The position numbers and the translations under genes were made by a program. From Nitrospirota bacterium (GTDB lineage Bacteria > Nitrospirota > Nitrospiria > Nitrospirales > NS-4): DNA of 64,000 nucleotides. The stretch covers positions 53,922 to 117,921 of the forward strand of contig VBOG01000107.1 in assembly GCA_005877815.1 (NCBI GenBank), in the 5' to 3' direction. The notes below the pieces were generated by a model. The model had not been told where the DNA came from and searched no databases. It was given only the letters and a program-made list of their open reading frames with translations. Shown in pieces: positions 10,893-21,695 of this stretch; the first letter of the stretch is position 1, and every line of letters begins with the position of its first letter.

Positions 10893-11690
10893 CTAAGAAG
10901 ACGCGGGTAGCGGCTTCTCGGGCGGCGGCGCATTCAACGTCTTAAGGAACATCATGATGGCTTTGGCGTCATCATCGCTGATGCCCAGGTTCGGCATCTT
11001 CGTTTCAGGTTTCATGCTCTGGGGATACTTGATCCACCGGTACACCCAAGATGGGTTCAGCCGGAAACCCGCACGGTCCAGTTCGGGGCCGACTTGCCCG
11101 CCGGTCTTCCCGACTGAATGACAGGCGTTGCAGCCGTACTTGTTGAAGTAGAGTTGCTTGCCCCGCCCGGTCAATTGCGCCTCTTCGTCGGAACTCGCCG
11201 TGACCAGAGGCTTGGGGACCGCCGCCATCTTCGGCCGTTCCTTCTTGAACGAGTCCCAGTCAGCCTTTTCAAGCTTCATGCCATGCAGCGTCCGGACATA
11301 GGCCACGAGGGACCAGAGTTCTTGTTCCGAGAGCGTGTATTTGAAGGTCGGCATGGTCGGGACGGCAAACTCATCGTCGCCGATCTTGTCGCCGACATTC
11401 GGAGTGGTATCTTTCATGTCCCGCGAGATCGTCTCGAAGATTTCCGTGTCCTTCAGCGTGCTCATCTCATCCTTGTTCGAAAGATCCTTGGGTTTCGGAT
11501 CAGGCATGAGCTTCCAATTGAAGCCTACTCCGGGCTTGCCGTTCGCGCCGTGGCAGTGCGAGCAGTAGTAGGCGTAGAGGTCCGCGCCTTTTTTGACATG
11601 CTCATTCTGGAACAGGGTGCATCCGGCCACACCGACCAACACCGCCACGGCTCCCACACCCACCAGACCCACGACGTATTGCGACTTCAT
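10893..11690 (-). CDS. Dihaem cytochrome c lipoprotein
   Basis: Last gene of the respiratory operon. The 265-residue product has a lipoprotein-like signal (VLVGVAGC) and two class I cytochrome c domains, with haem motifs CSHCH (about residue 45) and CNACH (about residue 190). A methionine ligand is likely in the MPNLG segment of the second domain. The true start is the ATG at 11690, which overlaps the stop of the upstream gene by 4 bases (ATGA), not the track start at 11975. It probably passes electrons outside the cytoplasmic membrane. Confidence 0.9.
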   Translation of the reverse strand: MKSQYVVGLVGVGAVAVLVGVAGCTLFQNEHVKKGADLYAYYCSHCHGANGKPGVGFNWKLMPDPKPKDLSNKDEMSTLKDTEIFETISRDMKDTTPNVGDKIGDDEFAVPTMPTFKYTLSEQELWSLVAYVRTLHGMKLEKADWDSFKKERPKMAAVPKPLVTASSDEEAQLTGRGKQLYFNKYGCNACHSVGKTGGQVGPELDRAGFRLNPSWVYRWIKYPQSMKPETKMPNLGISDDDAKAIMMFLKTLNAPPPEKPLPASS

Positions 11691-12637
11691 GCCGGTTGCC
11701 CTTTTTTCACCTTCCGAATAATGACGAACTCCACGCCGGCCGCCAGTACAACGGCGACAAGACCATAGAGGTAGACGGAATAGTCCATCGGCGGTTCCGC
11801 ATTGAAGTACCACCATGAGGACACGGCCTTCTGCGAACCCGATTCCTTGAAGTCCCCGCTCTCCAGTTTCTTGCCGTCCCAGACGGCGAAGGCGATATTG
11901 GGGAAGGTCCCTGTCTGGAACTGAGCATCCTGCGCATCGGTGGTGGTGAGGGCACGCACAAAGACAATCCGCCACACCCCCGTGACTTCTTCTTCCACAA
12001 CACTCGTCTCTTCATCCACGATGGGGTCGCCGGTCTTGGCATCCTTCATCGGCTCCCCTTTCGCGTCTTTTCGCAGGGCTATCTTCCGCACCTTGTAGTT
12101 GATCTTCGTCTTTTCGGGCTTCCACACGGCCTTCGCCTGAACGTCTTGCTGGGCCTCTTTTTTGAGGGTCCCGAATCCCTTCGCCGTCATATCGGCAGCC
12201 CCCGGAGTGTCGTTGCGCCAATACCAGATATTGACCGGGCCGCCTTCGACCTGGCCCATGGGCTGCCCATGGGCGAAGTGAGCCTTCTTATCCCCGACCA
12301 TGAATTCAAGCGCGGCGGCGTCCGCCGGATCTTGTGTGGGATCAGCGTATTCGAGCAGAAACGCAATCTGTTTGTTGTTATGGACGGCGCGAACCTTGAC
12401 GGACTTGACCGTGACTTGTTGGATCCGCTTCTGCCAATGGACTTGGGGCGACAATGGAAACTCTGTGACGGGAAGCGTATTCCAGGCAGCCGCCGTGGGA
12501 TCGGTCGGGAGGTCGCCCTGCACCAGCTTGGCGCGCACGACCACGCTCTCCTGAGAGAAAACGGAGGAGGGGGACATCAGTCCTGCTCCCGCCCCGATGA
12601 GGAGCGCAAGCAGTCTGCAATGGGTGCCCTTCATCAT
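11687..12637 (-). CDS. Ethylbenzene-dehydrogenase-type haem b-binding membrane-anchored subunit
   Basis: The 316-residue protein has a signal peptide ending near SSVFSQES. A periplasmic beta-rich domain resembles the gamma subunits of type II DMSO-reductase-family enzymes (ethylbenzene dehydrogenase, NxrC-like), with IAFLLEYADPTQDP, VNIWYWRN and IAFAVWDG segments. One C-terminal membrane helix is followed by a basic tail (IIRKVKKG). In known relatives this domain holds a b-type haem. It overlaps the following cytochrome gene and follows another, so it is probably a structural or electron-transfer subunit of the same complex. No molybdenum subunit is encoded nearby. Confidence 0.75.
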   Translation of the reverse strand: MMKGTHCRLLALLIGAGAGLMSPSSVFSQESVVVRAKLVQGDLPTDPTAAAWNTLPVTEFPLSPQVHWQKRIQQVTVKSVKVRAVHNNKQIAFLLEYADPTQDPADAAALEFMVGDKKAHFAHGQPMGQVEGGPVNIWYWRNDTPGAADMTAKGFGTLKKEAQQDVQAKAVWKPEKTKINYKVRKIALRKDAKGEPMKDAKTGDPIVDEETSVVEEEVTGVWRIVFVRALTTTDAQDAQFQTGTFPNIAFAVWDGKKLESGDFKESGSQKAVSSWWYFNAEPPMDYSVYLYGLVAVVLAAGVEFVIIRKVKKGQPA

Positions 12638-12640
12638 GAG

Positions 12641-13363
12641 TTACTCCCAGGTCCTGGGCTTCTGCCCGGCACCGGCGTATTCGGCCATGATAATTTTCCA
12701 GATCTGATCGTCTGATAACTCAACTTCCCAACGTGGCATCGCTGATTTCCAGGGATGGCCTTCCACGGAAAGACCCACTCCCCCCTTCTTGATCCGCCAG
12801 AACAGGTAGGATTCCTGGAGCATCGCGATGGTCGTCGGATCTGAGAAGTTGGCCGGTTGCGGGTTGAACCCGTCTGAGGCCGGGCCGTTGCCGTTGAACT
12901 TTGGACCATGACAGGGCATGCAATACGCGAAGTAGAGACCTTTCCCCATCATCACATTGTCAGGTGTATTCGGAACCGGGTTCGAAAGTCCGACGAATTC
13001 GCCCGGGGGTGCCGGGTGAATGGTCCGGTTCTCTGAAGGCGGCTGAGAGCTCGGAACAAAACCACTGTACGTCTGCCACCCGACCAGCAATGGGAACAAC
13101 ACCAGCACCGCCAATCTGGCCATCTTGGTTGTCCCCTCAATGCCTTCCCCACTGAGGAAGCGAAAGATCGGACCTAACAGCGCTTCCGTGGATTCTCCGC
13201 TCAGCGTCCCGTAGACGATGATGCCGATGGTGGTGAGGAACAGGTAGAGCCAGATGAGACTCATCGGCAGGGGCGCCGTGAAGAGGGGCAAGATCAACTT
13301 CAAGAACAGGAAGATCGCCCCTAAAAGGATGCCGCCCTTCAGCGCTAACGAGGAACTTTTCAT
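12641..13363 (-). CDS. Membrane-anchored monohaem cytochrome c
   Basis: The 240-residue protein has two or three N-terminal membrane helices (GGILLGAIFLFLKLILPLF, LIWLYLFLTTIGIIVYG) and one C-terminal cytochrome c domain with CMPCH near residue 150. WKSAMPRW may supply the methionine ligand. Its stop lies 4 bases before the start of the haem-b subunit gene, so translation is probably coupled. Confidence 0.9.
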   Translation of the reverse strand: MKSSSLALKGGILLGAIFLFLKLILPLFTAPLPMSLIWLYLFLTTIGIIVYGTLSGESTEALLGPIFRFLSGEGIEGTTKMARLAVLVLFPLLVGWQTYSGFVPSSQPPSENRTIHPAPPGEFVGLSNPVPNTPDNVMMGKGLYFAYCMPCHGPKFNGNGPASDGFNPQPANFSDPTTIAMLQESYLFWRIKKGGVGLSVEGHPWKSAMPRWEVELSDDQIWKIIMAEYAGAGQKPRTWE

Positions 13364-13397
13364 CTGCCTCTCCTCTCACCCTGTGTACTCACGGCAT

Positions 13398-14231
13398 TCA
13401 CAACGGCTTGGCTGTCGCCTTCGCGTCCATGAGATAGGCCATGAGATCGTCGAAGTCTTTGAGCGCCAGCTTCCGATCGAACCCCTGATGATCCTTGCTC
13501 CCCAGCTTGGGCTCGGATAACACCAGGCGCCGCAATCCGGGGTCCGTCTGCCTTCCGAGTACCGGCAGCAGGTCCGTTTTGCCCTTCTCGGCGACGCCGA
13601 CGGTATGGCACTTAGCGCACAGCGCTCGAAACACCTTTTGGCCGCCGGCCTTGTCGCCTATCACCAAGACCACGTCGTACGGCGCCTCGATTTCAGATGG
13701 GTCAACGGTGATCTCCTCGCCCGACATGCTCTGAAGAAACGCGATGACTGCATAAATTTCATTTTTGTTCAAGCCGATAGGCTTTTTGTTGATGTACGGC
13801 ATTTTCGCGGGGAAAAACTTCGGCGGTCCGACGTGCTGGTAATCCATATAGACGTAGGCCTGTGGCTGCGTCAGACTTTCATAGAGGAATTGCCGGGTCA
13901 GTTTGGCCCCGACACCTTTGAGATCCGGGCAGCGTCCTTCGCTGCTGCCAATCGTATGACAGAGCGCGCACTGTCCTTTGCCGAAAAAGATCTTCTGCCC
14001 GATGGCGGCCAGATCCTTCTTGTCCTTGATGGAGGCAACGTCGAACTTCTCGACGGCGGGCGGCAAGGACGCCATCTGCGGCACCCCGAGCGCGACCAAC
14101 GAAAAGGCACCCAGCACCATTGAGACAAAGGCGACCACCCGAATGAAGCGAGCCTTCACGAACAGCAGGAGGGATGCCCCCACGCCGACCACAGTCAGCC
14201 CGATCACCTGCAGCAGTTGGACTTCAGTCAT
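13398..14231 (-). CDS. Membrane-anchored dihaem cytochrome c
   Basis: The 277-residue protein starts with two hydrophobic helices (LLQVIGLTVVGVGASLLLF, VVAFVSMVLGAFSLVALGV). Two cytochrome c domains follow, with haem sites CALCH (about residue 89) and CAKCH (about residue 205). FPAKMPYINKKPIGL resembles a methionine-ligand loop. It lies between a bd-like subunit gene and the monohaem cytochrome, with short intergenic gaps. Confidence 0.9.
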   Translation of the reverse strand: MTEVQLLQVIGLTVVGVGASLLLFVKARFIRVVAFVSMVLGAFSLVALGVPQMASLPPAVEKFDVASIKDKKDLAAIGQKIFFGKGQCALCHTIGSSEGRCPDLKGVGAKLTRQFLYESLTQPQAYVYMDYQHVGPPKFFPAKMPYINKKPIGLNKNEIYAVIAFLQSMSGEEITVDPSEIEAPYDVVLVIGDKAGGQKVFRALCAKCHTVGVAEKGKTDLLPVLGRQTDPGLRRLVLSEPKLGSKDHQGFDRKLALKDFDDLMAYLMDAKATAKPL

Positions 14232-14246: not shown

Positions 14247-16073
14247 CTATTGACGCACCACTGGGACCGGACCTGCTCCGACGACCGGCACCCGCGTTTC
14301 CTTTTGCTGGGGCTTTTTTTCGCCGCCCAAAGAGGCCACCCAGAAAATAAACGCGACCATGAGGCAGAACAAGAAAGTGTTCAGCGACATGAAAGCCGCG
14401 GCATAGCCCAGAGCCGGGGAATAGGCGTAGGGGGAAGTATCCTGCATCACGCCATAGATATGCCAGTGGACCCGGGATGAAGAACGGGCGTACCCCATGA
14501 GGGTCATCAGCAGTATCACCATGACCGCATTCAGGACCAGCGCGTAGCCGGCACGAGCCGGCATTACGCCCCACACCATCTCTGTGGTGGTTTTCGCGCT
14601 CTTCATCAGGAGTCCGGTCAACGGGGTGACGGTGAGTAGCACGAAGAGGACGATCAGCACTTGCGTTGTCGAGAATTTATCGATGCGGGTGATCGCCGGC
14701 ACAAAGTACCCCCAGACGCCGAGCACTACGATGACGATCGCCGCAAGCCCGAGAATCACGCCCATAACCGCCTTCGCGGCTTTCGCCCATGCGGCGGTCT
14801 CCTGCTTGCCAGCGCGCCAGTACATGATGAAGCTCATGAACGTGACCAGGATCATGAGATTCGCCACGGTCATCTTGGCCGACATCACGCCGAAGACGCC
14901 GAGCAGCGGGTGATGGGTGCCACCCATCTTGCGGGCTTCCTCAAGGCTAGCCACCAGTGAGTGGGGAGTCATCCAGATACCCAGGCACACCAGCAGGATC
15001 ACCAGCATGATCAAGATCGGCCGGCGATATTTCGGCTCCGAGCCGGGGATTCGATACATGATCCCAAGCCAGAAATAATAATTCGCCCCAAGAAACAAAA
15101 TCCCAATCAGCATCGCCTGGAGAATGAACAGCCACGACAGAAAGCCGCCCATTAAGGTAATGCCCATCTGCTGGTTATACTGGTACACCTCCCGCATCAA
15201 CCAGTAGCCCGCAAACGGCAGAGGCAACATGCCGAACACTCCGATGAAGTTTCCGACGTAGCCCATCCAGTCATAGTGCACGCGCTCCTCCTGGCTGGTC
15301 GTCATCAAATACTTCAACCCTGCATAGGCGCCACAGAGAAAGCCGCCTAGGACCACGTTTGCGATCAAACGATGCACATTCAACGGCCACCACGTCGGAT
15401 TCCAGGTGGCCGCCCAAGCCTTGGCCCACATGCTGCTTTCAGTGATCACAACGGGGCTCGTCTGAAAGGTCGCCCAGGAGTTCGGCACGATCATGATGAA
15501 TAACGCGAAGACGTTCAATAGAAAGCCCAGGAACAGATGCATTCCTTTCTTGCGGCCCTGCATCGCGTCCCAGCCATACCAGTACAGATAGAGCGTCGCG
15601 GTCTCCAATAGAAAGAGCGCACTGTAAACCAGGAACGACGGAAAGAAGACGTCCGTCAAATAGTTCATGAGCTTCGGATACAGTCCGATCAACAGGAATA
15701 GAAGGATTCCGCCGAACAAGGCAGTAGTCGCGTAGGCGGAGGTCAACAGTTTCGTGAATTCCTTCGCCAGCTTATCGTACCGGGGGTCCTTGGTCCGTAC
15801 ACCCACGATCTCGCAGACCCAGGCGAAAATCGGAACGCCGAGCACAAAACCAGCCAACAGCAGGTGCTGCTGGGCGACGATCCAGATGAGGTTCCGGCTC
15901 CCGATACCAGGGACATCGCGATACTCAACCGCAGCACCCGCCGGCGCTTCCTGTGCCATGGCCAACCCGAGGGGAGCGGCCAGTACCAACACAAGCATCA
16001 CCAGAAGCGCCGCATAGGCCCAGACCCGCTCCGAGCGTCTCATTTCGCGTGGATGGCTGTTTCGGTGTTCCAT
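14247..16073 (-). CDS. Cytochrome bd-like quinol oxidase subunit I (second copy)
   Basis: A large CydA-like membrane protein of about 608 residues with many hydrophobic helices. Two conserved histidine segments resemble CydA haem-ligand regions: VAQQHLLLAGFVLGVP and WWPLNVHRLIANVVLGGF. MTPHSLVAS and PVVITES are shared with the paralogue at 19830. No CydB partner gene lies in the window. GAGGAG eight bases before ATG 16073 favours that start over the track start at 16169. The C-terminus is an extended hydrophilic tail. It may work as an electron-transfer or oxygen-reducing part of the complex. The role is inferred, not shown. Confidence 0.75.
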   Translation of the reverse strand: MEHRNSHPREMRRSERVWAYAALLVMLVLVLAAPLGLAMAQEAPAGAAVEYRDVPGIGSRNLIWIVAQQHLLLAGFVLGVPIFAWVCEIVGVRTKDPRYDKLAKEFTKLLTSAYATTALFGGILLFLLIGLYPKLMNYLTDVFFPSFLVYSALFLLETATLYLYWYGWDAMQGRKKGMHLFLGFLLNVFALFIMIVPNSWATFQTSPVVITESSMWAKAWAATWNPTWWPLNVHRLIANVVLGGFLCGAYAGLKYLMTTSQEERVHYDWMGYVGNFIGVFGMLPLPFAGYWLMREVYQYNQQMGITLMGGFLSWLFILQAMLIGILFLGANYYFWLGIMYRIPGSEPKYRRPILIMLVILLVCLGIWMTPHSLVASLEEARKMGGTHHPLLGVFGVMSAKMTVANLMILVTFMSFIMYWRAGKQETAAWAKAAKAVMGVILGLAAIVIVVLGVWGYFVPAITRIDKFSTTQVLIVLFVLLTVTPLTGLLMKSAKTTTEMVWGVMPARAGYALVLNAVMVILLMTLMGYARSSSRVHWHIYGVMQDTSPYAYSPALGYAAAFMSLNTFLFCLMVAFIFWVASLGGEKKPQQKETRVPVVGAGPVPVVRQ

Positions 16074-16086
16074 GACCATCTCTCCT

Positions 16087-16938
16087 CTATTTCCCCTTCC
16101 GCTCGGGTTTCTTCGACTCTTTGCTTTTCGCGTCTTCGAGCGACGCCAAAATAGCTTCCGCCTTGGCAAGGGAGTTCTCCGTTTTCTTGAGCGCGTCCTC
16201 AGGTTTCATGGGTTTGGCGGGTTTGCTGACCTCCGGCATCTGATAGTCCTGATGAGGATGCGGCGTCGTCACGGGAAGAACCATCCAAAAAGCTATGGTC
16301 ACCAAGACCATCGCTGCGCCGAACGACGTGATCATGAGGCCAACATCATCCGGTACGCGTGCAGAATCCCATTGCCGCACCCGCTCGAAATAACTCGCCG
16401 AGCTCGTCGTGCCGGAGGACGCGATCAGGCGCTTGATGCACCACCCGAAGAGTTTGAGCCAGATCAGCAGCAACACCAGGGCGAGGATCGTCACCGGGAT
16501 CGTCCATAGGAGCAGCTCGACGGTGATCTGTTCTGCAATGGGAAAGTGAGGAAACACCTTCTTGATGAGTCCGATGATCCCGGCCGCGACCTTTTTCCCG
16601 ACATCGACAGCACCGCTGACGGCATAGTAAGAGATTCCGAGAACCAACCCGCCCAAGACCGCCCCTTGCCACCACAGCGTGAAGCCGACAGGCGCGTCGA
16701 TGTCCAGGCCGAGACGTTCGAGAAAGACCGTTCTCGCCGTCAAGCCCAGCGCCCAGATGTCAATCGGGATGGAGACCAACAGCAGGGCAATCAACCCTCC
16801 GCCTTCCCACGGATTGATCCCGGCCGCCAGCAGCAATAGCGCAACGATCAGTTTAAGCGGGAATCCGGTCCAGAATGCGGACCAGGACACCGCCCAGGCG
16901 AGCTTGACCGACGGAGTCTTTTCCGGTGATGGCGTCAT
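16087..16938 (-). CDS. Unknown membrane protein of the respiratory operon
   Basis: Not recognised. The 283-residue protein has four to five predicted helices (e.g. LIVALLLLAAGI, LLLWTIPVTILALVLLLIWL, GAAMVLVTIAFWMVLPV). It ends in a highly charged Lys/Glu-rich tail (AKAEAILASLEDAKSKESKK) that may form a coiled coil. The start is ATG 16938, five bases beyond the cytochrome b stop, rather than the track start 17016 inside cytochrome b. Its position between cytochrome b and a bd-like subunit suggests a structural part of the complex. Confidence 0.7.
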   Translation of the reverse strand: MTPSPEKTPSVKLAWAVSWSAFWTGFPLKLIVALLLLAAGINPWEGGGLIALLLVSIPIDIWALGLTARTVFLERLGLDIDAPVGFTLWWQGAVLGGLVLGISYYAVSGAVDVGKKVAAGIIGLIKKVFPHFPIAEQITVELLLWTIPVTILALVLLLIWLKLFGWCIKRLIASSGTTSSASYFERVRQWDSARVPDDVGLMITSFGAAMVLVTIAFWMVLPVTTPHPHQDYQMPEVSKPAKPMKPEDALKKTENSLAKAEAILASLEDAKSKESKKPERKGK

Positions 16939-16943
16939 CCCCG

Positions 16944-18029
16944 TCAATCCAAAAACTCGCGGTTCAAAATCGCCGACACCGTCAACACCGTAATCCCGAT
17001 CATCACAACGGCCCAACAGAGCAGTGCGATCGGCCGCTTGAAGATGTTGCGTTCGGGATTCCGGTCAATAAACGGCAGGGCCACCAACAGCAGCATGAAC
17101 AATCCCGGAATGGCGATTGCGCCCAGGAACTGCCCGAATTCACCGGAAAAGACCTTCCACCGCAGCAGTTGAAAAAGAAACAGGAAGTACCACTCCGGCT
17201 CGGGATGATAGTCCCCGGGATCGGGGGTCGCCTGCTCCAACAATTGCACCGGCTCGATCAGCGCAAGCGTCGAGATGATGAGAAAGACCACCCCCATCGC
17301 CATGATGTCTTTCCAGACCTGGCGGGGGAAGAAGAAGTCGGTCTTGGCCTTCAATTCGTCGGGCGTGCCGCGGAACGGTCCGGCAGGTCCCGCCGATCGG
17401 AACAAAAACAGGTGCAACCCCGCGAGTCCCATCAGGGCGCCAGGGAGAATCATCACGTGAATAACGAAGAATCGGCTGAGCGTCATCTGTCCAGGCGTCG
17501 GACCACCCTTGAGAAATCGGGCGAGAAAATCTCCGATGACCGGCGTCTTATCCATAATCTCCACACCGACCGTCGTCGCCCAATAGGCCCGCTGATCCCA
17601 CGGCAGGAGATAGCCGGTAAATCCAAACGCCATGACGAGTCCGAAGAGCGCCAGCCCCACAAGCCAGACCATTTCCCGTGGCTTTTTATATGCGCCCCAC
17701 AAGAACACCTGCGACATGTGGGCAAAGACCATTACGACCATCGCCGAGGAACCCCAAAAATGGTAGCTCAGGATGTACCACCCGTAATCCACCTCATGGA
17801 TGATGAACTGCGTGCTGGCATAGGCATGGTCCGCGCTGGGGATGTAATAGAACATCAGCAGCATACCCGTGATCGCCTGCATGATGAAGATGAACAGGAG
17901 GACCGACCCGAAGACGTAGGCCCACCGTGAGCCACCCTTGATCGGCTCCTTCATCAACTTTGCTTCGAGGGTTTTGAGGCCGATGCGCTCCTCGACGAAG
18001 TCGTAGACTTGTTGGAACAAGGCGTTCAT
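16944..18029 (-). CDS. Cytochrome b of a bc-type quinol:cytochrome c oxidoreductase
   Basis: The 361-residue protein combines the cytochrome b6-like N-terminal half with a subunit IV-like C-terminal half. Haem-ligand histidines are visible in SYHFWGSSAMVVMVFAH and in the pair FFVIHVMILPGALMGLAGLH. The quinol-site PEWY motif occurs in HPEPEWYFLF, and GYLLPWDQ is conserved. It follows the Rieske gene directly (stop TAA then ATG with no gap). It oxidises quinol and, with the Rieske protein, feeds c-type cytochromes. In a nitrite oxidiser such a complex may also run in reverse. Confidence 0.93.
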   Translation of the reverse strand: MNALFQQVYDFVEERIGLKTLEAKLMKEPIKGGSRWAYVFGSVLLFIFIMQAITGMLLMFYYIPSADHAYASTQFIIHEVDYGWYILSYHFWGSSAMVVMVFAHMSQVFLWGAYKKPREMVWLVGLALFGLVMAFGFTGYLLPWDQRAYWATTVGVEIMDKTPVIGDFLARFLKGGPTPGQMTLSRFFVIHVMILPGALMGLAGLHLFLFRSAGPAGPFRGTPDELKAKTDFFFPRQVWKDIMAMGVVFLIISTLALIEPVQLLEQATPDPGDYHPEPEWYFLFLFQLLRWKVFSGEFGQFLGAIAIPGLFMLLLVALPFIDRNPERNIFKRPIALLCWAVVMIGITVLTVSAILNREFLD

Positions 18030-18974
18030 TTAGGCGATTCTGACCTGTTCTCGCTTGCCCGCCTTAAACTCAATGTCGATCACCTCGATCTCGCCCGCGG
18101 GCGAGATCTTGATCGGCAGCACGTCCAAGGGGCGCGGCGCCGGACCGTCCAGGACGGTGCCCGCCACATCGTAGATGGAGAGATGGCAGGGGCAGAGGAA
18201 CACTTGGCCGCGGGTCTTGTGTGATCTCCATTTATACCCGCATCCAAGATGCGGGCATTTGCCTGAATAGGCGACATACGGCACCGTCGCTCTGTTTACC
18301 CACACGACATTTCCCACGTTATCGGTGAAAGTGATATCCCCGTGCTGATAAATCTGCTTGAGCGTTGCCGGAGAGGCCTTCACCACCCAATTGTTCTTGT
18401 CTTCCTCGCGTTGAAGGACCGAATCGCGGAAGGACTTCTTGAAGGTGAACTGCACGCCGATGTCCTCTTGTTTGATCTTGCTGGTGTTCCCGATCTTCCA
18501 CCATCGGTTGTCGAACGGCGCATACATCGGTTTCATGACGTATTGCAGGACGGGCCACACAAACGGGAACCCGATCAACACCCCCATCAGCGTGGTAAAG
18601 CCCGTAAAAAACGTGCGGCGGGCGCAGCTTCGCTCTAATTCTGGAAATGGGACGAAGATTTCGCCAGGTTCGGCGTGAATCCGGTCTTCCAGGTGGGGAA
18701 TCTCCACCTCTTTGGAGGACAGAAAATCGGCCCGAACGAACGCCGGGAACTCCGGAACCTGTGCCGATTTGCAGCTGAGCTCGACCGTATTCTCATCAGC
18801 CGACCGGATCGTCTCTACCGGCACTTGGCGTTCGGTCCCATTGGACTTGACGACGATGTGGCTGACCTCCAGCGTCAGGGGATCGGCAATCACATGCGAA
18901 ACTTCGCCGATGGGGCCGTCCAGGCAACGGACCGTGGATTTGATTTTCGGTTGCAGCCCCATATGTTCCATCAT
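18030..18974 (-). CDS. Rieske 2Fe-2S protein with N-terminal PRC-barrel-like domain
   Basis: The C-terminal half is a Rieske domain with cluster ligands in CPHLGC and CPCHLS. One membrane helix near residue 130 (FTTLMGVLIGFPFVWPVL) anchors it. Residues 12-70 look like a PRC-barrel: DGPIGEVSHVIADPLT, HIVVKSNGTERQVPVETI, then TVELS. That domain is not part of ordinary bc1 or b6f Rieske proteins. Length is 314 residues compared with about 180-200 for standard forms. It sits directly upstream of cytochrome b and is the iron-sulfur subunit of the complex. Confidence 0.9.
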   Translation of the reverse strand: MMEHMGLQPKIKSTVRCLDGPIGEVSHVIADPLTLEVSHIVVKSNGTERQVPVETIRSADENTVELSCKSAQVPEFPAFVRADFLSSKEVEIPHLEDRIHAEPGEIFVPFPELERSCARRTFFTGFTTLMGVLIGFPFVWPVLQYVMKPMYAPFDNRWWKIGNTSKIKQEDIGVQFTFKKSFRDSVLQREEDKNNWVVKASPATLKQIYQHGDITFTDNVGNVVWVNRATVPYVAYSGKCPHLGCGYKWRSHKTRGQVFLCPCHLSIYDVAGTVLDGPAPRPLDVLPIKISPAGEIEVIDIEFKAGKREQVRIA

Positions 18975-18989: not shown

Positions 18990-19823
18990 CTATTTCTTGA
19001 TCGGCTTGGGCGTTTCGACCGAGGTATCCTTCAGACTGGACAGATAGGCGATGAGCGCGTCGACTTCCTGATCGGCCATGAGTTCCTTATATTTGTCGGG
19101 CATCAATTTCTTGGCATATTCCTTGTCGAACCCCTCGGCCATCCAGGCTCGGGGGTTCAACAGTTTTTCTTTGAGCTCTTCCGGCTTCATCAGATTGCCG
19201 ATGTTGTCGAGAATAGGCCCGCGCTTTTTCACAGACCCTTTGCCGCCGATCTTGTGGCAGTTGTAACATTCCTGCAACTCGTACTGATCTTTGCCGAGCG
19301 CGATCAAATCACCCCCACCTCCTGCGGACTTCGCTGCCGCGGCCCCGCCGGTGCTTCCTGTCGAAGCAGCGATCGACTTCACTTCCGCCCCGCCGATCGT
19401 CTCAAGGCGCTTCATGATGGCCTGGCTTCGTGCGTTCAGTTCTTCGCTCCGCTTCAGCAGCTCATCCACCTTGCCCTTCTCGGTCATGGCAAGTTTTGGC
19501 TTCACGATTTTGTCGATTTTGCCTTTCTCCACCGAGGGATCATACTGCGGCAGCACATTGGCTCCTGCGATGAACGCCCCGGAGACCAAGGCGTAGAACG
19601 CGACCAACGCAGCGATTGCTTTGGCACCGGTGAAGCTCGGCAAGGCCGGCGCATCAAGGAGAATATAGACAATGGTTCCCAATAATACATAGAGCATGAA
19701 CATGATCTGAAAGACGGGCGGAAAATGCATCAGCTTGGCCGCGACGAACACCACAACGGCAATGACGGCCCCAAGGATGCCTTTGGTTACAACGAGACGG
19801 AGAAGACTTTTCTCTTCCGGCAT
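18990..19823 (-). CDS. Membrane-anchored monohaem cytochrome c with coiled-coil linker
   Basis: The 277-residue protein has three N-terminal helices (GILGAVIAVVVFVAAKLM, MFMLYVLLGTIVYILL, AALVAFYALVSGAFIAG). A Lys/Glu-rich linker (VDELLKRSEELNARSQAIMKRL) and a Gly/Ala-rich hinge follow. A C-terminal cytochrome c domain carries CYNCH near residue 190 and an AKKLMPDKY methionine-ligand candidate. It lies between a bd-like subunit and the Rieske gene and may relay electrons between the modules. Confidence 0.9.
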   Translation of the reverse strand: MPEEKSLLRLVVTKGILGAVIAVVVFVAAKLMHFPPVFQIMFMLYVLLGTIVYILLDAPALPSFTGAKAIAALVAFYALVSGAFIAGANVLPQYDPSVEKGKIDKIVKPKLAMTEKGKVDELLKRSEELNARSQAIMKRLETIGGAEVKSIAASTGSTGGAAAAKSAGGGGDLIALGKDQYELQECYNCHKIGGKGSVKKRGPILDNIGNLMKPEELKEKLLNPRAWMAEGFDKEYAKKLMPDKYKELMADQEVDALIAYLSSLKDTSVETPKPIKK

Positions 19824-19829
19824 GGCTTC

Positions 19830-21695
19830 CTATTTGGCGCCGGCGGGCACCGGCACCGCCTTCGGGACTTCCGCGACGGCCTTGTCCTTGCCAGTGCGCA
19901 GCGTCAATACGATGGCAAAACTGACGATGATATAAAAGGTCACCGTGATGCCCGTGATCAACCAACTGGAATACGCCAACGTCGGTGTAAAGGATTCCGG
20001 AGTAAAGTCGTACTGGAGGTTGAACACGTGGAAATACTTTCGGGTCAGCTCCCGTACGACGCCCATGAGTCCCATCGTCCAAATGGCGCTGAAGGCCAAA
20101 AAGACCAGGACGAACTGGCTCACGAAGTCAATTTTTCCCCAGATGATCCGCCCGTTGCGCAACGCGCGGTTATACATGATGTAATTAATGATCGTGACGA
20201 ATACCAGCGTGAAGGCCGCTGCGTTCTTCGCGGGCATCAATGCCAGCATGTCCCACGAGATGGTGATAAAGCCCAGGCTGACCTCTCCGTGAGGCAGACT
20301 GAGAGAGCCATCATCGGGGGCGAGCGCTTGGGTCGCGACGAAGGCATGGGGCGTCATCCAAATGGCATTGCCGATGATGACCATGAGGAACGCCACTTTC
20401 ACCATCGTCTGAGAGGACACCGTCCAGGGAATTATTTTTCCGATGAGCAACCAGGCTCCAACATAGACGGCTGGAATGATGAAGGCCATCTTGTCGGGGA
20501 TGGGAAACTTCGTCCAGACCATCATGAAGACGACGGGCACACTGACCATCAGCAGCAATGTTGCAAGGGACATCCGGATCCGCTCAATCCCTTCGATCCG
20601 TTTCATGCTCAACCAGATGTAATAATTACTCGCAAGAAAGATGAGCCCGACCATCGCGCCCTGCATCTCGAAGAACATAGAGAGTTGATCGGCCATCATG
20701 TATGGACAGATCGACGCGTCGTAATCGCACAATTCGTAGGCCAATAAGTAGCCGGCGAAAGGAAGGACCAGCAGCGCACCCACCCCGATCATGTTTCCCA
20801 CGAAACCGAACCAATCGTAAAAGGCCCGATCCTCATCGGTTTTCGAGGCCAGATACATGTAGGCGGCGATGAGGCCTGCGATGAACCCGCCAAACACCAC
20901 ATTGCCGACGGTGCGATGGATGTTTAACGGCCACCAAGTGTAGTTGTCCATCTTATCCCATAGCGTGGCGGTCGTTTCGATGAACGTCTTGAGGTCCAAT
21001 CCTTCGGCGGACTTGACCGGCGTGTTCATGAACGAGGTGGGGCCGTCGATCACAAAGAGCGTAACCAGGCCCACGATATTCAGCAACGCGCCAAGCGCGA
21101 TGTGCCGACCCTTCTTCGGACCTTGCAACGCGTCCCAGGTATACCAATACAGATACAGAATGATCGTCTCCGCGATGAACAGGAGCGGGTAGATGATCGC
21201 GAAGACCGCAAAAAAGTGGTTGATCAGCCATGCGGTGAACTGGGGATACGTGGCGAGCAGCACGAAGATGAAGAGTCCCCCTGTGAGGGCCGTCATGCTG
21301 TACAGAATGACCGTGACTTTCGTGACTTCCTTGGCCAGCCGTTCGTACCGATACCGCGCAGCATAGTTCTCTCCGCTCAGCCAACCCAGAATCTCGCTCA
21401 CGACGATGAAGATCGGCGCCCCGAGAATAAACGCGGCGAAGAGGATGTGGAGTTGCGCCACGACCCAGACAGCGGCGCGGTTCCCGCCGAGAGGAAAAGT
21501 GTGCGCCTTGGGCTCGGGAAGTTGCGCATAGGCGGCCGCCACGCCAAGCAACAGGATGAGTGTCACCGCAAAAGCCGCCGTCACGCCGCTACTCACCGCA
21601 AAACGCGGCATCCGCAGCCCGGACGTGTTCGTGCGCCATTGCATCCACCGGGCCGCCGAAGAACCGCCCGGCGCTTTGAGTCGCCAGATCTTCAT
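19830..21695 (-). CDS. Cytochrome bd-like quinol oxidase subunit I (first copy)
   Basis: A CydA-like membrane protein of 621 residues, paralogous to the one at 14247-16073. Shared elements are VAQLHILFAAFILGAP, WWPLNIHRTVGNVVFGGF, an ANYY/SNYYIWL helix and MTPHAFVA. It begins with a hydrophobic leader (VTAAFAVTLILLLGVAAAYAQ). Again no CydB gene follows. ATG at 21695 has GAGG just upstream. A shorter start within the first 30 residues is possible. Two non-identical copies in one operon suggest a heteromeric arrangement (inference). Confidence 0.75.
   Translation of the reverse strand: MKIWRLKAPGGSSAARWMQWRTNTSGLRMPRFAVSSGVTAAFAVTLILLLGVAAAYAQLPEPKAHTFPLGGNRAAVWVVAQLHILFAAFILGAPIFIVVSEILGWLSGENYAARYRYERLAKEVTKVTVILYSMTALTGGLFIFVLLATYPQFTAWLINHFFAVFAIIYPLLFIAETIILYLYWYTWDALQGPKKGRHIALGALLNIVGLVTLFVIDGPTSFMNTPVKSAEGLDLKTFIETTATLWDKMDNYTWWPLNIHRTVGNVVFGGFIAGLIAAYMYLASKTDEDRAFYDWFGFVGNMIGVGALLVLPFAGYLLAYELCDYDASICPYMMADQLSMFFEMQGAMVGLIFLASNYYIWLSMKRIEGIERIRMSLATLLLMVSVPVVFMMVWTKFPIPDKMAFIIPAVYVGAWLLIGKIIPWTVSSQTMVKVAFLMVIIGNAIWMTPHAFVATQALAPDDGSLSLPHGEVSLGFITISWDMLALMPAKNAAAFTLVFVTIINYIMYNRALRNGRIIWGKIDFVSQFVLVFLAFSAIWTMGLMGVVRELTRKYFHVFNLQYDFTPESFTPTLAYSSWLITGITVTFYIIVSFAIVLTLRTGKDKAVAEVPKAVPVPAGAK

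What the first reader, a model, noticed from the sequence alone, without database searches (positions are those of the whole stretch)
18030..18974. PRC-barrel-like domain fused to a Rieske protein
About 80 residues before the membrane anchor have a clear PRC-barrel pattern (GPIGEVSHVIADP, HIVVKSNG, QVPVETI). This domain is known in the photosynthetic reaction centre H subunit and in RNA-processing proteins. On the cytoplasmic side of a bc complex it could control assembly or proton/quinone access.
Basis: seen in the sequence. Interest (0 to 1): 0.55.

Follow-up and report, generated by a model that had tools for sequence, protein, structure and literature searches.

The report
Rieske protein with a PRC-barrel domain
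The iron-sulphur subunit of a respiratory complex in Nitrospira-like bacteria carries a small extra barrel-shaped domain, predicted to face the cell interior and to share the fold of the cap on purple-bacterial photosynthetic reaction centres; it is conserved across the order, and no paper mentioning it was found in the open-access library searched.

Summary
The 314-residue ORF at 18974-18030 (-) is a Rieske [2Fe-2S] protein with an N-terminal PRC barrel (residues about 9-76), a conserved 40-residue linker, an invariant internal twin-arginine motif (R119-R120), one membrane helix (118-151) and a Rieske head. AlphaFold2 models the barrel well (pLDDT 84-92), and the best 50 Foldseek PDB matches to it are PRC barrels or PRC-containing proteins, including reaction-centre H subunits (about 1.5 A over 72 residues). 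Nitrospira moscoviensis passes Pfam's PRC cut-off; the window's own protein does not.

The fusion is the norm in Nitrospirales (56 of 58 relatives). It belongs to complex III "CIII_1", in a conserved operon with cytochrome b, cytochromes c, two bd-like oxidase subunits and alt_nxrC. Deeper relatives (two other families; a Leptospirillum-like family) keep only PRC-Rieske plus cytochrome b, so the PRC domain travels with cytochrome b, not with the oxidase. The second Rieske of the same genomes lacks it.

Best explanation: a cytoplasmic-side module of a b6-type bc complex, held inside by an uncleaved internal Tat anchor, probably docking on cytochrome b near its inner quinone site. Domain and side are well supported by prediction; docking and function are inferred. 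New variant of a known kind.

The parts
18030..18974 (-). PRC-barrel/Rieske fusion, Rieske subunit of complex III (CIII_1 type), 314 aa
18747..18950 (-). PRC-barrel domain, residues 9-76 (strands 14-17, 20-31, 36-44, 47-52, 56-59, 63-66)
   Evidence: AlphaFold2 pLDDT 84-92 over residues 11-80; Foldseek top 50 PRC barrels or PRC-containing proteins; Pfam PRC in 28/36 relatives
18627..18746 (-). Conserved acidic linker between barrel and membrane helix, residues 77-116
   Evidence: 64% mean pairwise identity, about as high as the TM helix (65%) and above the barrel (54%); R81, G104 and P111 invariant in 36 sequences
18615..18620 (-). Internal twin-arginine (Tat) motif R119-R120 (ARRTFF)
   Evidence: invariant in 36 sequences with F122
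18522..18623 (-). Single transmembrane helix, residues 118-151
   Evidence: AlphaFold2 helix H118-151; hydropathy maximum within 121-147
18087..18344 (-). Rieske [2Fe-2S] domain, residues about 211-296; C240-P-H242-L-G-C245 and C261-P-C263-H264-L-S266-I-Y268
   Evidence: Pfam PF00355 E 2.6e-8; PDB matches to bc1/b6f Rieske proteins
16944..18029 (-). Cytochrome b (b6-type haem spacing, PEWY, no Cys35), directly downstream
   Evidence: Pfam PF00033/PF00032; downstream in 71 of 71 eligible named loci
18990..19823 (-). Membrane-anchored monohaem cytochrome c, directly upstream
   Evidence: Pfam PF00034; upstream in 73 of 73 eligible named loci
19830..21695 (-). bd-like subunit 1 (CydA-like)
   Evidence: Pfam PF01654; conserved in 67/67
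14247..16169 (-). bd-like subunit 2, the putative terminal oxidase of Nitrospira (bd-like_2 / OR-N2); equated with the published gene by operon position
   Evidence: Pfam PF01654; conserved in 56/57; PMC6606698, PMC12342949
16087..17016 (-). Membrane protein of unknown family conserved in the operon (true start uncertain; the ORF overlaps the cytochrome b end)
   Evidence: no Pfam family above cut-off; present in 61/62
11687..14231 (-). Dihaem cytochrome c, second cytochrome c and alt_nxrC-like protein closing the operon
   Evidence: dihaem cytochrome c 54/55, alt_nxrC 48/52

Best explanation
This is the Rieske subunit of the complex III called CIII_1 in Nitrospirales. Its N-terminal PRC barrel stays in the cytoplasm, because the protein is inserted by an uncleaved, internal Tat signal-anchor. 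The Rieske head sits on the periplasmic side and passes electrons between the outer quinol site of the b6-type cytochrome b and the neighbouring cytochrome c (in either direction, since nitrite oxidisers need reverse electron flow). The barrel and its conserved acidic linker most likely dock on the inner (N-side) face of cytochrome b, near the inner quinone site, and act as a built-in cap that stabilises the complex and shapes proton or quinone access, much as the reaction-centre H subunit caps the N-side beneath QB. Predicted with good support: fold, fusion, side, constant pairing with cytochrome b. Inferred: docking, capping, effect on quinone or proton traffic.
For: Fold: (RC-H match about 1.5 A over 72 residues, TM-score 0.65 by query). 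Family signal. Topology: invariant RR plus one TM helix plus Rieske head. Partner: cytochrome b directly downstream in 71 of 71 eligible named loci and in deep relatives that lack the bd-like oxidase operon in the fetched stretch. The second Rieske/cytochrome b pair of the same genomes has no PRC, so the domain marks a particular complex. The linker is as conserved as the TM helix. The RC H subunit is described as capping the N-side and lengthening the proton path to QB (PMC8239185).
Against: No complex structure or co-fold was available, so docking on cytochrome b is not shown. Domain order is the reverse of RC-H (there TM then PRC; that order is from general knowledge). The barrel itself is the least conserved structured part (54% against 69% for the Rieske domain), which fits a scaffold better than a finely tuned proton path. 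Cytochrome b lacks Cys35 in both the PRC and non-PRC types, so no special inner-site feature was found that goes with PRC.
Confidence: 0.5

Rival explanations
1. Biogenesis module: the barrel is a folded cytoplasmic N-terminus that acts during maturation, for example holding the precursor until the [2Fe-2S] cluster is inserted and Tat export can proceed, or binding an assembly factor, as the C-terminal PRC domain of RimM does for a ribosomal protein.
For: RimM's C-terminal domain binds ribosomal protein S19 during assembly (PMC8073977, abstract). The fused Rieske has an internal Tat motif about 115 residues from the start, whereas in the ordinary paralogues it lies close to the start. Linker conservation up to the RR motif fits an export-timing role.
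Against: The ordinary Rieske of the same genomes needs no such module. An anchored domain would remain in the mature complex anyway. Linkage in the operon is to cytochrome b and electron carriers.
Confidence: 0.25
2. Supercomplex tether: the barrel links complex III to another N-side partner, such as the bd-like terminal oxidase of the same operon or complex I.
For: The operon joins complex III with bd-like oxidase subunits in nearly all Nitrospirales loci examined, and a III-IV supercomplex has been proposed for N. moscoviensis (PMC6606698).
Against: Deep relatives (L052, L053, L069 and the Leptospirillum-like L055-L065) keep PRC-Rieske plus cytochrome b with no bd-like gene in the fetched stretch, so the domain is not tied to the oxidase operon. 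It could have been re-used later.
Confidence: 0.15
3. Passive remnant: an old fusion with no present function beyond stability.
For: The barrel is the least conserved structured part (54% pairwise identity).
Against: Kept intact in 56 of 58 relatives and in deep lineages at about 40% identity.
Confidence: 0.08

Closest known systems
Complex III 'CIII_1' of Nitrospira moscoviensis (PMC6606698); L131 = NZ_CP011801.1, about 702364-703293
   Same: Matching operon content: Rieske, cytochrome b, bd-like_1, bd-like_2, cytochromes c, alt_nxrC_1. Its Rieske passes Pfam's PRC cut-off.
   Different: The paper passages read describe the Rieske subunit with no mention of a PRC domain.
Photosynthetic reaction-centre H subunit (PRC barrel, e.g. 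2gnu_H, 7vy2_H)
   Same: Same barrel fold (about 1.5 A over 72 residues), one TM helix, predicted N-side location beside a membrane quinone enzyme.
   Different: Here the PRC domain precedes the helix, the rest of the protein is a Rieske head, and the partner is a cytochrome b.
Ordinary Rieske subunits (TIGR01416; second Rieske of the same genomes)
   Same: Tat-anchored single-helix Rieske [2Fe-2S] protein next to cytochrome b.
   Different: No PRC, RR close to the start, about 34 residues shorter after RR, mostly CPCHGS instead of CPCHLS; the window protein scores 55.8 against the TIGR01416 cut-off of 97.4.
Actinobacterial QcrA Rieske proteins
   Same: An internal twin-arginine motif with extra sequence before it (PMC5449189).
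   Different: QcrA has two extra TM helices before the motif; here it is a soluble barrel.
Archaeal CdpB1/CdpB2 and stand-alone PRC-barrel proteins (8qzo, 8onw, 3htr, 1pm3)
   Same: Fold and PRC motif.
   Different: No Rieske domain and no link to a bc complex.

Membership tests
Rieske subunit of bc-type complexes | CxHxGC ... CPCHxS cluster motifs and Rieske fold | tested here: met
   C240PHLGC245, C261PCHLS266; Pfam PF00355 above cut-off; Foldseek to bc1/b6f Rieske proteins
Rieske subunit of bc-type complexes | Tat-type membrane anchor before the Rieske head | tested here: met
   invariant R119-R120 and helix 118-151; internal rather than near the start
Rieske subunit of bc-type complexes | Encoded with cytochrome b | tested here: met
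   cytochrome b directly downstream
Rieske subunit of bc-type complexes | NCBIfam equivalog TIGR01416 cut-off (proteobacterial-type Rieske) | tested here: not met
   55.8 bits against 97.4
Rieske subunit of bc-type complexes | Quinol:cytochrome c electron transfer | not testable with these tools
   needs biochemistry
PRC-barrel domain | PRC beta-barrel fold | tested here: met
   AlphaFold2 plus Foldseek, 50 of the top 50 PRC barrels or PRC-containing proteins
PRC-barrel domain | Pfam PRC gathering score | tested here: inconclusive
   met by N. moscoviensis (21.6) and L052 (21.4), cut-off 21.2; window protein has only a sub-threshold DUF2171 match (18.6 against 25)
Reaction-centre H subunit | TM helix followed by cytoplasmic PRC domain | tested here: not met
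   order reversed here
Reaction-centre H subunit | PRC domain docks on the N-side of a quinone-reducing membrane core | not testable with these tools
   no complex model available
Actinobacterial QcrA | Two TM helices before the internal Tat helix | tested here: not met
   a soluble barrel precedes it; one TM helix only

The most novel reading that the evidence does not exclude
Respiratory complex III of Nitrospirales has its own reaction-centre-H-like cap: a PRC barrel under the inner quinone site of cytochrome b that controls proton or quinone access, recruited independently for two unrelated quinone enzymes, possibly linked to the reverse electron flow that nitrite oxidisers (and, if the Leptospirillum-like family is that, iron oxidisers) depend on.
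Probability: 0.25. Interest if true: 0.7.

Novelty: new variant of a known kind. Interest (0 to 1): 0.42.

Why it matters
Nitrospira are widespread nitrite oxidisers whose respiratory complexes are known mostly from genomes and transcripts. A conserved N-side domain on complex III, with the fold of the reaction-centre H subunit, gives a concrete thing to look for in a structure and a handle on how complex III may run forward and in reverse. It also provides a simple sequence marker that separates CIII_1 from the second complex III.

Tried and rejected
A first genome-contig scan with the single protein found no relatives; the scan with an alignment did. Assembly or annotation artefact rejected: the fusion is in 56 of 58 relatives, including single-contig genomes. 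Tie to the bd-like oxidase rejected as the origin, because deep relatives lack that operon in the fetched stretch. A cytochrome b peculiarity that goes with PRC was sought (Cys35, haem spacing, PEWY): Cys35 and haem spacing do not separate PRC from non-PRC types, and PEWY does not either, as it is present in most of both and missing in the Leptospirillum-like set. One origin of the fusion against two: the tree puts the Leptospirillum-like family away from the main PRC clade, but one clade is not rejected (p-AU 0.32). Full-length Foldseek listed only Rieske-containing matches, as that domain dominates, so the barrel was modelled alone. Literature: no paper in the library holds both 'PRC-barrel' and 'Rieske' or both 'PRC-barrel' and 'Nitrospira'; the library is open-access only. 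Occurrence outside the phylum was not surveyed.

Full report
The ORF at 18974-18030 on the minus strand encodes 314 residues. Pfam places a Rieske domain at 211-286 (E 2.6e-8) and a sub-threshold DUF2171 match at 15-73; that DUF2171 belongs with the PRC barrels is general knowledge and was not tested. The start could be M1, M2 or M5; relatives begin near M5.

Fold. AlphaFold2 on 36 aligned sequences gave pLDDT 82 overall, 84-90 for residues 11-80, with six strands between 14 and 66, and one long helix at 118-151. The N-terminal 95 residues modelled alone gave the same barrel. All 50 listed Foldseek matches of that model are PRC-barrel or PRC-containing proteins: the Rhodopseudomonas PRC protein 3htr, MTH1859, archaeal PRC/CdpB and CdvA, and many reaction-centre H subunits (E 2e-4 to 3e-3; about 1.5 A over 72 residues in several). 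That MTH1859 and CdvA are PRC proteins is general knowledge. A sequence profile of the domain finds PRC-barrel chains first in the PDB, though weakly (best E 0.026). Pfam PRC is seen in 28 of 36 relatives and passes the gathering score in N. moscoviensis. So a routine domain scan of that species would already show the domain, and the novelty is modest.

Distribution. A full-length match (about residue 6 to the end) occurs in 56 of 58 genomes including the window's own. The two exceptions are draft genomes; in one, a close match to the cytochrome b is only partial (residues 160-361), which suggests a contig break. In the wider phylum the fusion occurs in the same class (G187, G193, G254), in two further families (f18, f25; about 39-40% identity) and, at 22-29%, in family f21. 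Family f21 may be Leptospirillum: the single contig of G074 has 2,559,538 bases, which from memory is the size of the L. ferrooxidans C2-3 chromosome; this is a lead only. Two of five f21 proteins tested show Pfam PRC just under cut-off, and their N-terminal part aligns with the barrel. One same-order genome, G225 (99% complete), has neither the fusion nor its cytochrome b.

Operon. In the loci from named genomes, and wherever the locus reaches far enough, cytochrome b follows the fusion (71/71), a membrane cytochrome c precedes it (73/73), and bd-like_1 (67/67), the unknown membrane protein (61/62), bd-like_2 (56/57), the dihaem cytochrome c (54/55) and alt_nxrC (48/52) lie in the same order. 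These tallies leave out the three deep loci L069, L070 and L072. This matches the CIII_1 cluster of N. moscoviensis, which is consistently highly expressed and was proposed as a III-IV supercomplex with a novel bd-like oxidase (PMC6606698; OR-N nomenclature in PMC12342949). In the deep relatives L052, L053, L069 and in f21 only the fused Rieske and cytochrome b of this set are found together in the fetched stretch; where examined, that cytochrome b carries a CxxCH haem site. The constant partner of the PRC domain is therefore cytochrome b.

Contrast. Other Rieske proteins of the same and related genomes run about 162 residues from the RR motif against 190-204 in the fused ones. Most lie next to a cytochrome b that carries a CxxCH site, have RR close to the likely start, and give no PRC match in five tested. 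In the tree of helix plus Rieske domain the PRC proteins of Nitrospirales, its class and the two other families form one group at 100/100, away from the ordinary ones; f21 falls elsewhere, but a single PRC clade is not rejected. The fused Rieske keeps the serine and tyrosine of the second motif (CPCHLSIY in 69 of 77), which from general knowledge go with a high redox potential.

Mechanism. RR at 119-120 is invariant in 36 sequences and is followed by the only long helix, so the barrel and its linker are predicted to stay in the cytoplasm while the Rieske head is exported folded by Tat. An internal Tat motif has precedent in actinobacterial QcrA (PMC5449189). The linker is as conserved as the helix (64% and 65%) and more than the barrel (54%), which suggests contacts at the membrane surface. 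The reaction-centre H subunit caps the N-side and lengthens the proton path to QB (PMC8239185). By analogy the barrel here is proposed to cap the inner face of cytochrome b. That last step is inference; no complex could be modelled.

Limits. No other phylum was surveyed. The E-values of single sequence matches to PRC are weak; the case rests on the model, the fold search and the family-wide signal together. Function is not shown.

Noticed in passing
L149:2656-3368 (G000 contig C198): The second Rieske of the window's genome looks broken: its frame ends at GPAPGHWIACR and the rest continues in another frame, with no cytochrome b behind it; the whole genome shows only one cytochrome b. The PRC-type complex may be the only complete complex III here, or the draft assembly is faulty.
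   Followed up: partly
G225 (same order, 5.2 Mb, 99% complete): A Nitrospirales genome with neither the PRC-Rieske nor a matching cytochrome b; loss or assembly gap not resolved.
   Followed up: partly
window 16087-17016 (-): Membrane protein with no Pfam family above cut-off, conserved in the CIII_1 operon between cytochrome b and bd-like_2.
   Followed up: no
window 18345-18521 (-), residues 152-210: The fused Rieske has about 34 more residues after the RR motif than the ordinary ones, and a bulky conserved KPMYxPFDNxW stretch at the end of the anchor helix, where other Rieske proteins have their hinge.
   Followed up: no
L055-L065 (family f21): PRC-Rieske next to a cytochrome b with a CxxCH site in a Leptospirillum-like family, CPCHHS motif; possible second origin of the fusion.
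   Followed up: partly
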